A DNA stretch of 64,000 nucleotides. Origin: Christensenellaceae bacterium. GTDB taxonomy: Bacteria; Bacillota; Clostridia; Christensenellales; Christensenellaceae. Below are positions 47,427 through 53,480 of the stretch, in pieces; position 1 is the stretch's first letter, and each line of letters starts with the position of its first letter. The notes beneath the pieces were generated by a model that ran no database searches, was not told where the DNA came from, and saw nothing but the letters and a program-made list of their open reading frames with translations. The stretch lies in contig AP025580.1 of NCBI GenBank assembly GCA_022846035.1, forward strand, positions 1,240,001 to 1,304,000, read 5' to 3'. The translations under genes and the position numbers were made by a program.

Positions 47427-47840
47427 CTACAGAGTAGTCTTTCTCTTGGTCAGGCTGAGACGCGCCATTGCCCGCGCAAGCGCAATCTTATTGCGACGGT
47501 ATTCCTCCGCGCTTTTCCGTTGCCGCAGGCGTTCCTCTGCACGCTCTTTTGCACGCTCCGCCCGTTTTACGTCAATCTCTTCCGGCCATTCCGCCGCCTG
47601 CGTAAACATAATCGTTTCGTCTGGGCGCACCTCCAAAAAGCCTTCCGCCACAGAGCATATCAGCCACTTTTTTCCAGTATTGATTTTTACTTCGCCCGGC
47701 ACAACCGTCACCACTTCCGCCTCGTGTCCCTTTTGGATAGACATCTGTCCGTCTTCCGTCGGAAAGATGATAGATTGCGCATTGTCGCAAAAAAACGAAC
47801 GTTCGGGCGTTAAGATTTCAACCAGGAATTCTGAAGCCAT
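47427..47840 (-). CDS. atpC: ATP synthase F1 subunit epsilon
   Basis: Epsilon is the regulatory central-stalk subunit. LVEILTPERSFFCDNAQSIIFPTEDGQMSI marks the N-terminal beta sandwich; the C-terminal two-helix region has RAKERAEERLRQRKSAEE. The 137 residues are normal. It is the last gene of the operon. Confidence 0.96.
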   Translation of the reverse strand: MASEFLVEILTPERSFFCDNAQSIIFPTEDGQMSIQKGHEAEVVTVVPGEVKINTGKKWLICSVAEGFLEVRPDETIMFTQAAEWPEEIDVKRAERAKERAEERLRQRKSAEEYRRNKIALARAMARLSLTKRKTTL

Positions 47841-47841
47841 T

Positions 47842-49254
<1,413 letters not shown>

Positions 49255-49266
49255 TCATAACTCCTC

Positions 49267-50127
49267 TTAGGTTAATGCGTCCATCGCTCCCACGATCTCT
49301 GTGATCTCCATCGTGATCGCCGCCTGCCGCGCGCGGTTCATTTCAATCTCCAGCTTTCCGAGCATTTCATCCGCATTTTTGGATGAAGCGTCCATCGCCA
49401 TCATACGCGCGCTATTCTCACTGGCAAACGCCTGTATGAGGGCACCGTATATCAGGCCGATGATATATTGCGGTACCAGAATATCGAACACCTTTTTGGG
49501 CGACGGATAATAATTCATCTCGTTGTCGTAATCAAGCTCCGTCTCAATATCGTCAAATTCGTCAAGCTCCACCGGAAGCAGCTTGAGCGCCGTGGGCACC
49601 TGTTTGACGGATGAAAAATAACGTGTGTAAATGAGATAGACCTCATTCATTTCCCCACTCTTATAAAGCGTCGCCAGGTCAGAAGCCAGATTACGCGCCT
49701 CATAAAGCGTCGGGTTTTGTGAAATATGCAAATACTCCACATCGATCGGCACGCCCTTGCGTTCAAAGAAAGCACGCGCTTCCTGTCCGATCGTAATGAC
49801 AAATTTATCGCCGTCAGACATAAAATCGTGCGCAAAATTTAAGATGTTATGATTGTAACCGCCGCACAGGCCTTTATCTGCCGCAATCACGATATACGCC
49901 GGATTTCCCTGCTGGTGCTTTTCCAAAAACGTATGACGAAGCTCATGCGAATGCACGAGAATATCCTTGATCGCGCTCCTGACACGGTTAAAATATAGCA
50001 AGTTTGCATCATAACGCGCAATCGCTTTCTTCATCTTGGATGTGGCGATCAGCTTCATAGCTTTTGTGATCTTGCTGGTATCGTTTATCGCGCGTATGCT
50101 GTTTTTCACATCGGCCGTGCTTCTCAT
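49267..50127 (-). CDS. atpG: ATP synthase F1 subunit gamma
   Basis: Gamma is the rotating central shaft. It opens with [24 protein letters not shown] and has [13 protein letters not shown], ending in [20 protein letters not shown], all typical. It is 286 residues long and overlaps the preceding alpha gene by four bases. Confidence 0.97.
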
Positions 50128-51986
50128 TCCGCATCCACACTCGCTTTCATTTCCAGATTTTCAGCTACCGGAAATTCATCCGCGCCTGTTTTCTCCTGCA
50201 AAAAGCCCCGCTTGAACTCTGCCGCGGCATCCAGAATCAACTTTTCATTTTCGTCCGACAACTGTCCGCTTTCCTTGATCGCGCTCCGCACCTGCGGATA
50301 TTTTGCGTTCACGAAATCCAGAAACTCGCTGTTGAAAGTGCGTATCCTGTCTACCGGAACGTCCATTAGCTGTTTATTCGTCGCAATGCAAAGGATGATC
50401 ACCTGATTCTCCACGGAATATGGCGCATATTGCGGCTGGATTAAGGCTTGTGTCACTTTCATGCCATTTGTCAGGGCATCCTGTGTCGCTTTATCCAAAT
50501 CGGAGGCAAACTGTGAGAACACTTCCAGTTCTCTGTATTGCGCAAGCTCAAGGCGCAAAGGCCCCGCGACCTTTCTCATGGCTTTGATCTGTGCGCTGCC
50601 GCCTACGCGGGATACAGAAAGTCCAACGTTGACAGCCGGCCTCTGTCCCGAATTAAAAAGCTCCGTTTCCAGATATATCTGCCCGTCGGTGATAGAAATA
50701 ACATTCGTCGGTATATACGAGGAAATATCGCCTTCCATTGTTTCGATGATGGGCAGCGCCGTCATCGAGCCGCCACCAAGTTTTTCAGACAGCTTAGCAG
50801 CCCGTTCCAAAAGCCGCGAATGCAAATAGAAAACATCGCCCGGATAGGCTTCGCGTCCCGGCGGCCTGCGCAAAAGCAGCGACATCGTGCGGTAGGCCAC
50901 CGCGTGCTTGGAAAGATCGTCGTATACAATCAGTACGTCCTCTCCGCGATACATAAAGCTTTCCGCAATCGCGCAGCCCGCATATGGAGCAATATACTGC
51001 ATCGGCGCAGTATCACTTGCCGTCGAAGCTACGACCGTGGTATAATCGAGCGCCCCGAATTCATTAAGCCTGTTGACGATTTCCGCAATCGTAGACGCCT
51101 TTTGCGCAATGGCGACATAAACGCATTTTACGTTTTTACCTTTTTGATTAATGATCGTATCTACCGCGATCGCCGTTTTACCGGTCTGCCGGTCGCCAAT
51201 GATAAGCTCCCTTTGTCCTCTACCGATTGGAATCATAGCATCAATGGCCATAATGCCAGTTTGCAGTGGCGTATCGACCGATTGCCTGTCGATAATCGGC
51301 GGAGCTGGCGTTTCGATCTGGCGGTTTTCATCTGTCAAAATGCTGCCTTTCCCATCGATCGGATGCCCAAGAGGGTTCATGACCCGCCCGAGGACCGCAT
51401 CTCCCACGGGAACCTTGACAACATCGCCCGTATGGCGCACCATGGAGCCTTCCGTGACATCGGCTACCCCATTTAACAGTACTGCGCCCACACGATCAAG
51501 CTCGAGGTTCATAACGATCCCGTAGGCCTCGTTTTCAAATTGCAGCAATTCGCCGTACTTACAGCCGTCAAGGCCACGCACAAAAACGACGCCGTCGCCC
51601 GTGCGTTCTACGATACCGATCATGGAAATATCATACTTCACATCATACTGTGTGATTTTCTTTTCCAGCTCGCTTCCGATAGAACTCCCCTTAAGCTCGC
51701 CGTTTACTTTGCTTTTCAGCGTTTCGATAATATCTTCTATTTTCTCAGTGCCCTGATACCCTGAATGATCGCCGATATAATTCTGCATTCTGTCAAGATA
51801 CGATTTCGCGCTCAAATCGTAAACCATATTATTTACGGTAGCGGTAAAACCGCTGATAAGCGTCGGGTCGGTCTCGACCTTAAAATCTATTTTTGCATCA
51901 AAAAGCTTTTCAAACTTTGTGACGATCGCAGAAATCTCATCGGGAGTAAATTCAGTTGCACAAATAAGTTTCCCTTTCAATTCCAA
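50124..51986 (-). CDS. atpA: ATP synthase subunit delta C-terminal domain fused to subunit alpha
   Basis: The 620-residue product is about 110 longer than ordinary alpha. Residues about 102-605 are a full alpha subunit: [17 protein letters not shown]-loop GDRQTGKT at 264-271, and the conserved arginine-containing [15 protein letters not shown]. Residues about 1-72 match the C-terminal domain of subunit delta (AtpH): [17 protein letters not shown], then [21 protein letters not shown] and [11 protein letters not shown] charged linker (71-100) joins them. There is no separate atpH: atpF ends three bases before this start. The delta N-terminal helical domain is thus missing. The alpha call is certain; the delta-domain call is a confident reading of the pattern. 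Confidence 0.93.
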
Positions 51987-52499: not shown

Positions 52500-52730
52500 T
52501 TATTTGCCCATCGTAAAGATCATAATAATAGAAATAACGAAACCATAAATTGCGGTAGATTCCGCAAGAGCCAGACCGATCAGAAGCACCTGGTTGATTT
52601 TGCCTGTCGCTTCAGGCTGCCGTGCAACAGCTTCGCAAGCTTTGCTCGTAGCGATACCCATGCCAATACCTGCGCCCATACCTGTAAAAACAGCGAGGCC
52701 CGCGCCAATTGCGATTAAACCCATATCCAT
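52500..52730 (-). CDS. atpE: ATP synthase Fo subunit c
   Basis: Subunit c forms the rotor ring. The 76-residue hairpin has GAGIGMGIATSKACEAVARQPEA and the ion-binding helix LALAESTAIYG with Glu57, Ser58, Thr59 and Tyr62, a pattern like sodium-binding rings. However, the glutamine usual in those rings is Met24 here. I chose the ATG at 52730 behind GGAGGT; the upstream ATG overlaps that site. Ion choice cannot be settled by eye. Confidence 0.96.
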   Translation of the reverse strand: MDMGLIAIGAGLAVFTGMGAGIGMGIATSKACEAVARQPEATGKINQVLLIGLALAESTAIYGFVISIIMIFTMGK

Positions 52731-52805
52731 TTTTTCTACCTCCATTTATTACATTGAAATATAAAATATTTTAAGCCGCACAACAGCGCAGCTTGTAAAC
52801 GCTTG

Positions 52806-53480
52806 TTATAGCTTTTCTTCCATAAAGGACATCGTCAGCATCGTAAAAACGTACGACTGCATCCCCAGATGGAAAAGTATAAAGTAAATCGACGCCAGCG
52901 CCGGAATCCCGATTGCGAAATAACCGAGCGCGCCATAAAGCATATCCATAACGACCAGGCCGCTGAACATATTGCCAAATAACCGGCACGCGAGCGAAAC
53001 GGGCACCGCCAGCGAAGAAAGCACATTGATCGGCACCATGAACGGTTTTGGTTGCGCATATGTTTTCAGCCATCCCTTGACTCCCTTGTAACGGATAGAA
53101 AAAGCAATGATCAACACAAACGTGATTACCGCGAGGCCGATCGTACAGTCAAGGTCCGTCGCGGGAGAACGAATCCCCAGAAACTCGAGCGCACCGCTCA
53201 GGATGATAAACGCAAACACCGTCATGATGTAAGGCGCGATAGCTTTCGCCTTATCCCCCATGATCGACGAAGAAAATTTGTTGACTCCGTCTACCATGAG
53301 TTCCATCACATTCTGGAAACCCTTAGGCACCCTCTTGAAGTTTTTCAGGATCACAAAACGAAAAATAAGTGCAAAAATAATAATGCCAATCGTCGTCCCA
53401 AACGCAGCTACAAGAGTCTGACTGACCTGTATCCCGCCGAAAATCGTCATCTTGCTGGGAAAGACACTGGGTATATTCAT
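52806..53480 (-). CDS. atpB: ATP synthase Fo subunit a
   Basis: Subunit a provides the ion half-channels. The essential arginine is Arg166 in LACRLFGNMFSG; five or six hydrophobic segments are seen, and the C-terminal helix reads YVFTMLTMSFMEEKL. It is 224 residues long and its start overlaps the stop of the upstream atpI-like gene by four bases. Confidence 0.95.
   Translation of the reverse strand: MNIPSVFPSKMTIFGGIQVSQTLVAAFGTTIGIIIFALIFRFVILKNFKRVPKGFQNVMELMVDGVNKFSSSIMGDKAKAIAPYIMTVFAFIILSGALEFLGIRSPATDLDCTIGLAVITFVLIIAFSIRYKGVKGWLKTYAQPKPFMVPINVLSSLAVPVSLACRLFGNMFSGLVVMDMLYGALGYFAIGIPALASIYFILFHLGMQSYVFTMLTMSFMEEKL

What the first reader, a model, noticed from the sequence alone, without database searches (positions are those of the whole stretch)
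50124..51986. ATP synthase alpha subunit carries a fused delta C-terminal domain; no separate atpH
The alpha product has an extra N-terminal block of about 100 residues. Its first 72 residues follow the pattern of the delta subunit C-terminal domain, including the [11 protein letters not shown] segment. atpF ends three bases before this gene, so there is no room for atpH, and atpF is of normal length. Normally the delta N-terminal helical domain caps the three alpha subunits and its C-terminal domain meets subunit b. Here the b-binding part is tethered to alpha and the cap domain is gone. With three alpha copies per F1, either three delta domains are present or some are unused, so the stator must be built differently. 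b-delta fusions are known in mycobacteria; I do not know of a described delta-alpha fusion.
Basis: partly seen in the sequence, partly recalled or inferred. Interest (0 to 1): 0.87.

Follow-up and report, generated by a model that had tools for sequence, protein, structure and literature searches.

The report
ATP synthase alpha carrying delta's tail
In this gut bacterium the part of the ATP-making enzyme that ties its head to its side arm has been shortened and built into the head itself, a layout that in an engineered enzyme allowed up to three side arms instead of one.

Summary
The 620-residue atpA product (50124-51986, minus strand) begins with a delta/OSCP C-terminal domain: residues 4-69 match Pfam OSCP positions 104-170, and an AlphaFold2 model of the block has delta/OSCP chains as top PDB matches. 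The delta N-terminal cap domain is absent. Searches of the genome found no other delta, one F-type alpha and no V-type E subunit. Named Christensenella records share the layout.

It is not unique. In 198 genomes of the order, 94 alpha loci split into 54 fused, 26 with a free-standing delta C-terminal domain and 14 with full delta. Twelve more fusions lie in eight families outside the order.

Nor is it undescribed. Ueno et al. [quoted passage not shown] The Christensenella enzyme is therefore probably multi-stalk; this is unproven.

New here: the breadth, the free-standing form, and seven relatives encoding b-delta-alpha as one protein.

The parts
50124..51986 (-). atpA: delta C-terminal domain fused to F1 alpha, 620 aa (start TTG at 51986, or the TTG at 51980 that lines up with ATG in relatives)
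51774..51980 (-). delta/OSCP C-terminal domain, about residues 3-71 (strand-helix-three strands-helix)
   Evidence: Pfam OSCP 104-170; AF2 model, pLDDT 82-89 over its first 60 residues; Foldseek top matches delta/OSCP
51687..51773 (-). linker between delta domain and alpha, about residues 72-100; predicted helical with low confidence, variable between species
   Evidence: AF2; higher dN/dS than the stretches on either side in the 8 of 15 pairs with a defined value
50202..51686 (-). F1 alpha proper, residues 101-595
   Evidence: TIGR00962
51990..52466 (-). atpF, subunit b, 158 aa, ordinary; the only PF00430 match of the genome at E up to 0.001
52500..52745 (-). atpE, subunit c, 81 aa (assigned by sequence and place, from recall)
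   Evidence: no family search run on it
52806..53480 (-). atpB, subunit a, 224 aa (assigned by sequence and place, from recall)
   Evidence: no family search run on it
49267..50127 (-). atpG, gamma (assigned by sequence and place, from recall)
   Evidence: no family search run on it
47842..49251 (-). atpD, beta (assigned by sequence and place, from recall)
   Evidence: no family search run on it
47427..47840 (-). atpC, epsilon (assigned by sequence and place, from recall)
   Evidence: no family search run on it

Best explanation
This is the operon of a natural F-type ATP synthase whose delta subunit has lost its N-terminal cap domain and whose delta C-terminal domain is built onto the N-terminus of alpha. 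With one alpha gene and no evident internal start, each F1 head should carry three copies of the b-binding domain, one per alpha, and nothing sits on the threefold axis to break the symmetry. The head therefore offers up to three equivalent docking sites for b2 stalks. Most likely more than one b2-plus-a module binds, which would raise the number of ions used per ATP and let synthesis run at a low proton motive force, as in the engineered enzyme. Shown: fusion, loss of the cap, no other delta found, ordinary b, conservation under selection. Inferred: three domains per head and equivalent sites. Not shown: the actual number of stalks and a-subunits.
For: Domain identity by profile, by a predicted fold matching solved delta/OSCP, and by a profile of the block whose best PDB sequence match is the engineered delta-alpha fusion 9jc1 (E 2.6e-20). 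One delta source and one F-type alpha found in the genome. Of 54 fused loci, 12 have no in-frame start codon between delta domain and alpha core, and only 5 have one with a Shine-Dalgarno-like 5-mer at the spacing I scored, so a separate plain alpha is not a general product. The b end keeps an R-E...D motif in all 31 rows (15 rows chosen by frame; the other 16 came from a set picked for holding ERE, so they do not count as independent). Alpha's own N-terminus is eroded where the cap is absent: the TIGR00962 match starts at median position 6 (54 fused) and 6 (26 free domain) against 2 (14 full delta) (kinship not corrected for). Engineered precedent: the same architecture gave up to three stalks and a-subunits. 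In seven relatives b, delta domain and alpha are one protein, so every alpha would bring its own membrane anchor.
Against: No biochemical or structural datum here bears on stalk number. One stalk per F1 would suffice for stator function. The engineered enzyme showed only 1.26 stalks per molecule on the grid and pumped less. In one deep clade of fusions, all 14 members whose b was read lack the common b end motif, and L171, L173 and L174 have it changed. The b-delta model has pTM 0.37, so it does not define the docking.
Confidence: 0.68

Rival explanations
1. Single-stalk enzyme: one of the three delta domains binds b2, the other two are idle or pack on the head, and the fusion merely replaces the cap as the anchor.
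For: Ueno et al. state that all ATP synthases so far have one a-subunit. Operon order is ordinary and one b gene was found. A linker of median 40 residues between delta domain and alpha core (range 13-83, 54 loci) permits it.
Against: Three copies of a selected domain per head without use would be odd; the engineered equivalent bound up to three stalks; the one-protein b-delta-alpha relatives are hard to build with one stalk.
Confidence: 0.3
2. Mixed alpha: proteolysis or internal translation yields two plain alpha and one delta-alpha per F1, restoring a single-stalk enzyme.
For: The linker is less constrained than its neighbours; 42 of 54 fused loci have some in-frame ATG, GTG or TTG in that stretch.
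Against: Only 5 of 54 have one with a Shine-Dalgarno-like 5-mer, and positions are not conserved. Proteolysis cannot be tested here.
Confidence: 0.05
3. Stop readthrough of atpF makes one b-delta-alpha chain per complex.
For: In the window atpF and atpA are in the same frame, one TAG and one codon apart.
Against: Only 13 of 53 fused loci with a scored b have b in frame, and there the stop is TAA in 9 and TAG in 4 (the b ORF was picked automatically and mis-picked at least in L103 and L127).
Confidence: 0.01
4. Sequencing or assembly error, or a degraded atpH remnant.
For: None found.
Against: Same open frame in six Christensenella genomes and named records; purifying selection.
Confidence: 0.01

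Closest known systems
Engineered delta-N-deleted/alpha fused Bacillus PS3 FoF1 (Ueno et al. 2025, Nat Commun 16:5410, PMC12229609; PDB 9jc1)
   Same: Delta N-terminal domain removed, delta C-terminal domain joined to the alpha N-terminus, no free delta.
   Different: Engineered, with the epsilon C-terminal domain also removed; stalk number measured there, unknown here. The paper's linker is called short; the natural one is longer and variable.
Natural delta-alpha fusion of Acidaminococcus fermentans and UniProt G4Q3K6, A0A1I2C5T3 (named in the Discussion of the same paper)
   Same: Fusion, with the delta N-terminal domain missing (stated for A. fermentans; the other two are said to be similar); predicted there to be multi-stalk.
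   Different: Different class (Negativicutes). I could not compare the sequences directly.
Mycobacterial b-delta subunit (e.g. PDB 7njk)
   Same: A delta domain fused to a neighbour in the stator; C-terminal domain fold matches.
   Different: Fused to b, not alpha; that delta keeps its N-terminal domain there is from recall.
N-ATPase (alternate F1F0)
   Same: No delta; b is longer and said to resemble the E subunit (PMC5706428, passages); TIGR03321 positions 184-243 match the window domain weakly (E 0.031).
   Different: Domain is on b; the window alpha is below the N-ATPase cut-off (604.7 against 750.5). [quoted passage not shown]
Chloroflexus aurantiacus ATP synthase (PDB 9itj and kin)
   Same: Delta C-terminal domain match; 12 delta chains in 6 entries, chains S and W in 9itk, which may mean two stalks.
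   Different: Delta is a separate 157-residue chain; no paper found in the library; stalk number is my inference.

Membership tests
Delta-N-deleted/alpha fused FoF1 (Ueno et al. 2025) | Delta C-terminal domain and alpha in one chain | tested here: met
Delta-N-deleted/alpha fused FoF1 (Ueno et al. 2025) | Delta N-terminal domain missing, no other delta in the genome | tested here: met
   a very divergent cap domain could escape a profile search
Delta-N-deleted/alpha fused FoF1 (Ueno et al. 2025) | Ordinary b able to bind the delta domain | tested here: inconclusive
   b is ordinary and its end resembles that of relatives; binding not shown
Delta-N-deleted/alpha fused FoF1 (Ueno et al. 2025) | More than one peripheral stalk and a-subunit per complex | not testable with these tools
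   needs purified enzyme
F1 alpha subunit (TIGR00962) | Score above curated cut-off | tested here: met
   756.8 against 484.45 bits
Complete delta subunit (TIGR01145 equivalog) | Both domains, above cut-off | tested here: not met
   positions 106-170 only, 41.3 against 57.5 bits
N-ATPase | Alpha TIGR03324 and b TIGR03321 above cut-off | tested here: not met
   604.7 against 750.5; 65.3 against 224.7
Mycobacterial-type b/delta (NF009961) | b carries delta | tested here: not met
   b 158 aa, 38.6 against 328 bits
A/V-type ATPase | E subunit (PF01991) in genome | tested here: not met
   no match in G000 at E up to 0.1

The most novel reading that the evidence does not exclude
Multi-stalk ATP synthases are not a laboratory curiosity but the normal F-type enzyme of much of the order Christensenellales (80 of 94 alpha loci sampled lack the delta cap) and of several other Bacillota lineages. 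Evolution first discarded the delta cap, leaving a free delta C-terminal domain, then joined that domain to alpha and split it off again many times, and in one lineage went on to join b, delta and alpha into a single protein of 736-754 residues, so that each alpha is covalently part of its own membrane-anchored stalk and the complex must have three.
Probability: 0.45. Interest if true: 0.92.

Novelty: new member of a known kind. Interest (0 to 1): 0.68.

Why it matters
Ueno et al. write that all ATP synthases so far have a single a-subunit, and conclude that the delta cap enforces one stalk. Natural enzymes without the cap are a ready test of that idea and of whether anaerobes tune the ion-to-ATP ratio by stalk number rather than by ring size. 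Christensenella has named, sequenced strains, and the order holds full-delta, free-domain, delta-alpha and b-delta-alpha forms for comparison.

Tried and rejected
Readthrough of the b stop codon: rejected, frame and stop codon not conserved. Internal initiation giving plain alpha: unlikely, no conserved start. A hidden delta cap in the genome: the one hit to the N-terminal half of OSCP lies in a DeoC/LacD-type aldolase. N-ATPase or V-type identity: rejected. A delta-domain hit in a MAG labelled Pseudodesulfovibrio (L187): its frame runs into unlike sequence after the linker, so I treat it as a chimeric contig and do not count it. Literature: all 10 paper searches used; in the listings and passages that I saw, only PMC12229609 speaks of a natural delta-alpha fusion; the library holds open-licence papers only and no bioRxiv. 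Seen of each paper: PMC12229609 outline, passages and the whole Discussion; PMC5709465, PMC5706428 and PMC4154653 passages only; other papers as search listings.

Full report
WHAT IS THERE. The window lies in a 2.77 Mb one-contig genome. On the minus strand the ATP synthase operon runs a, c, b, alpha, gamma, beta, epsilon (names other than alpha, delta domain and b are assigned by sequence and place, from recall). Between b and alpha, where atpH normally lies, there are three bases. The alpha ORF has 620 residues; alpha proper starts at residue 101 (TIGR00962).

THE EXTRA BLOCK IS A DELTA C-TERMINAL DOMAIN. Pfam OSCP matches residues 4-69 at profile positions 104-170, above the curated cut-off. 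An AlphaFold2 model of residues 2-121 with an alignment of 70 rows gives strand, helix, three strands, helix, with pLDDT 82-89 over the first 60 residues; overall pTM is 0.47 and the linker is poorly defined. Foldseek against the PDB returns 39 matches with E up to 0.001, all to chains of ATP synthase entries, those that names being delta, OSCP or b-delta; E. coli delta (6oqr_W) fits with rmsd 1.8 over 68 columns. A profile of the same alignment has as best PDB sequence the engineered delta-alpha fusion 9jc1.

NOTHING ELSE FOUND SUPPLIES DELTA. OSCP over the whole genome gives only this match above cut-off; the next is in an aldolase. One F-type alpha (E up to 1e-100), one PF00430 b (E up to 0.001) and no V-type E subunit (E up to 0.1) were found. 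No other V/A-type subunit was sought.

SELECTION. Among six Christensenella genomes dN/dS of the delta domain is 0.016-0.137 in 14 of 15 pairs (one undefined), of alpha 0.009-0.045 in 14 of 15 (one undefined), and of the linker 0.05-0.72 in the 8 of 15 pairs with a defined value. dS is often above 1, so the ratios are rough.

HOW WIDESPREAD. In 198 genomes of the order (minimum completeness set at 90%), 93 hold an F-type alpha and 93 an OSCP match; 105 have no such alpha at the cut-off used. I fetched all 94 alpha loci of that sample (a 95th, G016, was fetched too and left out of the counts). With an HMM grown from the window domain, each has a delta C-terminal domain just upstream or fused: 54 in one open frame with alpha, 26 as a separate short ORF, 14 as a normal delta of about 180 residues. 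'Fused' means no stop between domain and alpha. G051 has both a normal and a fused operon. In a phylum sample of 398 genomes, 340 had an OSCP match; I re-examined the 30 with the weakest matches apart from G275, G334 and G360, and read 12 further delta-alpha fusions in eight families outside the order. A likely thirteenth (G387) is cut by its contig end and not counted.

EVOLUTION. On an alpha tree of 125 rows (quick method, LG+G4), fused versus not needs 14 changes, at least 9 of them forced by well-supported branches; presence of the delta cap needs 5, at least 2 forced. So cap loss looks rarer than joining or splitting of domain and alpha. Where the cap is missing, the alpha profile match starts later (median 6 against 2), as if the helix that the cap would hold were eroded; kinship was not corrected for.

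HOW IT PROBABLY WORKS. In the ordinary enzyme one delta cap sits on the threefold axis and the delta tail binds b2. Ueno et al. 2025 (PMC12229609; passages and Discussion) removed the cap in Bacillus PS3 FoF1 and fused the tail to alpha: up to three stalks and a-subunits formed, H+/ATP rose from 3.0 to 5.8, and they named natural fusions in Acidaminococcus fermentans and two UniProt entries, predicting multi-stalk enzymes. Against it, their particles held only 1.26 stalks on average on the grid and pumping was weaker. The Christensenella protein has the same architecture. All alpha copies should carry the domain, since no general internal start is seen: 12 of 54 fused loci have no in-frame start in the linker and 5 have one with a ribosome-site-like 5-mer. 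I think a multi-stalk enzyme is more likely than not, but nothing here counts stalks.

b SUBUNIT. The b end keeps a common motif in many of these loci, but all 14 members of one deep clade of fusions whose b was read lack it, and L171, L173 and L174 have it changed; how those b bind is open.

STRONGEST SUPPORT FROM RELATIVES. Seven genomes (three genera) out of 61 searched in one family of the order encode a 736-754-residue protein with an N-terminal hydrophobic helix, a b-like stretch, the delta domain and complete alpha, behind a separate b gene (142-143 aa in six, 168 aa by its longest start in one). PF00430 is over its cut-off inside two of these proteins (G622, G610), found below it in three (G647, G633, G641) and not found inside two (G180, G643); OSCP is over cut-off in the one scanned (G180). 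Six of the seven have only this alpha at E up to 1e-50, the seventh (G643) also an ordinary one. If made as read, three alpha mean three anchored stalks. A table note in PMC4154653 (passage) that one Azospirillum N-ATPase b is 'probably misannotated as part of' alpha may be an earlier sighting of something similar.

MODEL OF b WITH THE DELTA DOMAIN. Reading the atpF stop as glutamine, the b end and the delta domain were predicted as one chain: mean pLDDT 83.6 but pTM 0.37, so both parts fold but their docking is not defined; PDB matches are again led by delta/OSCP, with a V-ATPase chain and FliH far weaker.

LIMITS. No experiment, no multimer prediction, no direct comparison with Acidaminococcus. 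Most genomes used are unnamed assemblies. No paper on the free-standing domain or the triple fusion was found in the searches, which cover open-licence papers only and were not aimed at the triple fusion, which I found after nearly all of them.

Noticed in passing
L136, L248-L254 (G180, G641, G633, G647, G622, G643, G610): b-like membrane anchor, delta C-terminal domain and alpha in one 736-754 aa ORF, with a separate b gene upstream; in 7 of 61 genomes of one family.
   Followed up: partly
L139 (G128): A separate 131 aa ORF holds two delta C-terminal domains in tandem, the first incomplete.
   Followed up: no
L242 (G251): A 290 aa delta with a second C-terminal domain appended.
   Followed up: no
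L243, L244 (G529, G379): b subunits of 271-272 aa ending in a delta-like C-terminal domain (weak OSCP matches), followed by a divergent alpha (48% identity to the window's); recalls the long b of N-ATPases.
   Followed up: no
L213, L214, L217, L218, L220 (one genus, g232): Short ORFs that match only the delta N-terminal domain (OSCP 6-98); in the two regions fetched (L246, L247) no alpha was found.
   Followed up: no
L086 and L127 (G051): One genome carries two F-type operons, one with full delta and one with the delta-alpha fusion.
   Followed up: no
loci L121, L128, L131, L133, L134, L142, L144, L147, L151, L152, L155, L162, L163, L169: In these fused loci the b C-terminus lacks the common R-E...D end motif, so its contact with the delta domain may differ.
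   Followed up: no
window 51685-51692 (-): An AAGGGGAG stretch lies just before the point where ordinary alpha would begin, perhaps a remnant of a former atpA ribosome-binding site; no ATG, GTG or TTG follows at the usual spacing.
   Followed up: partly
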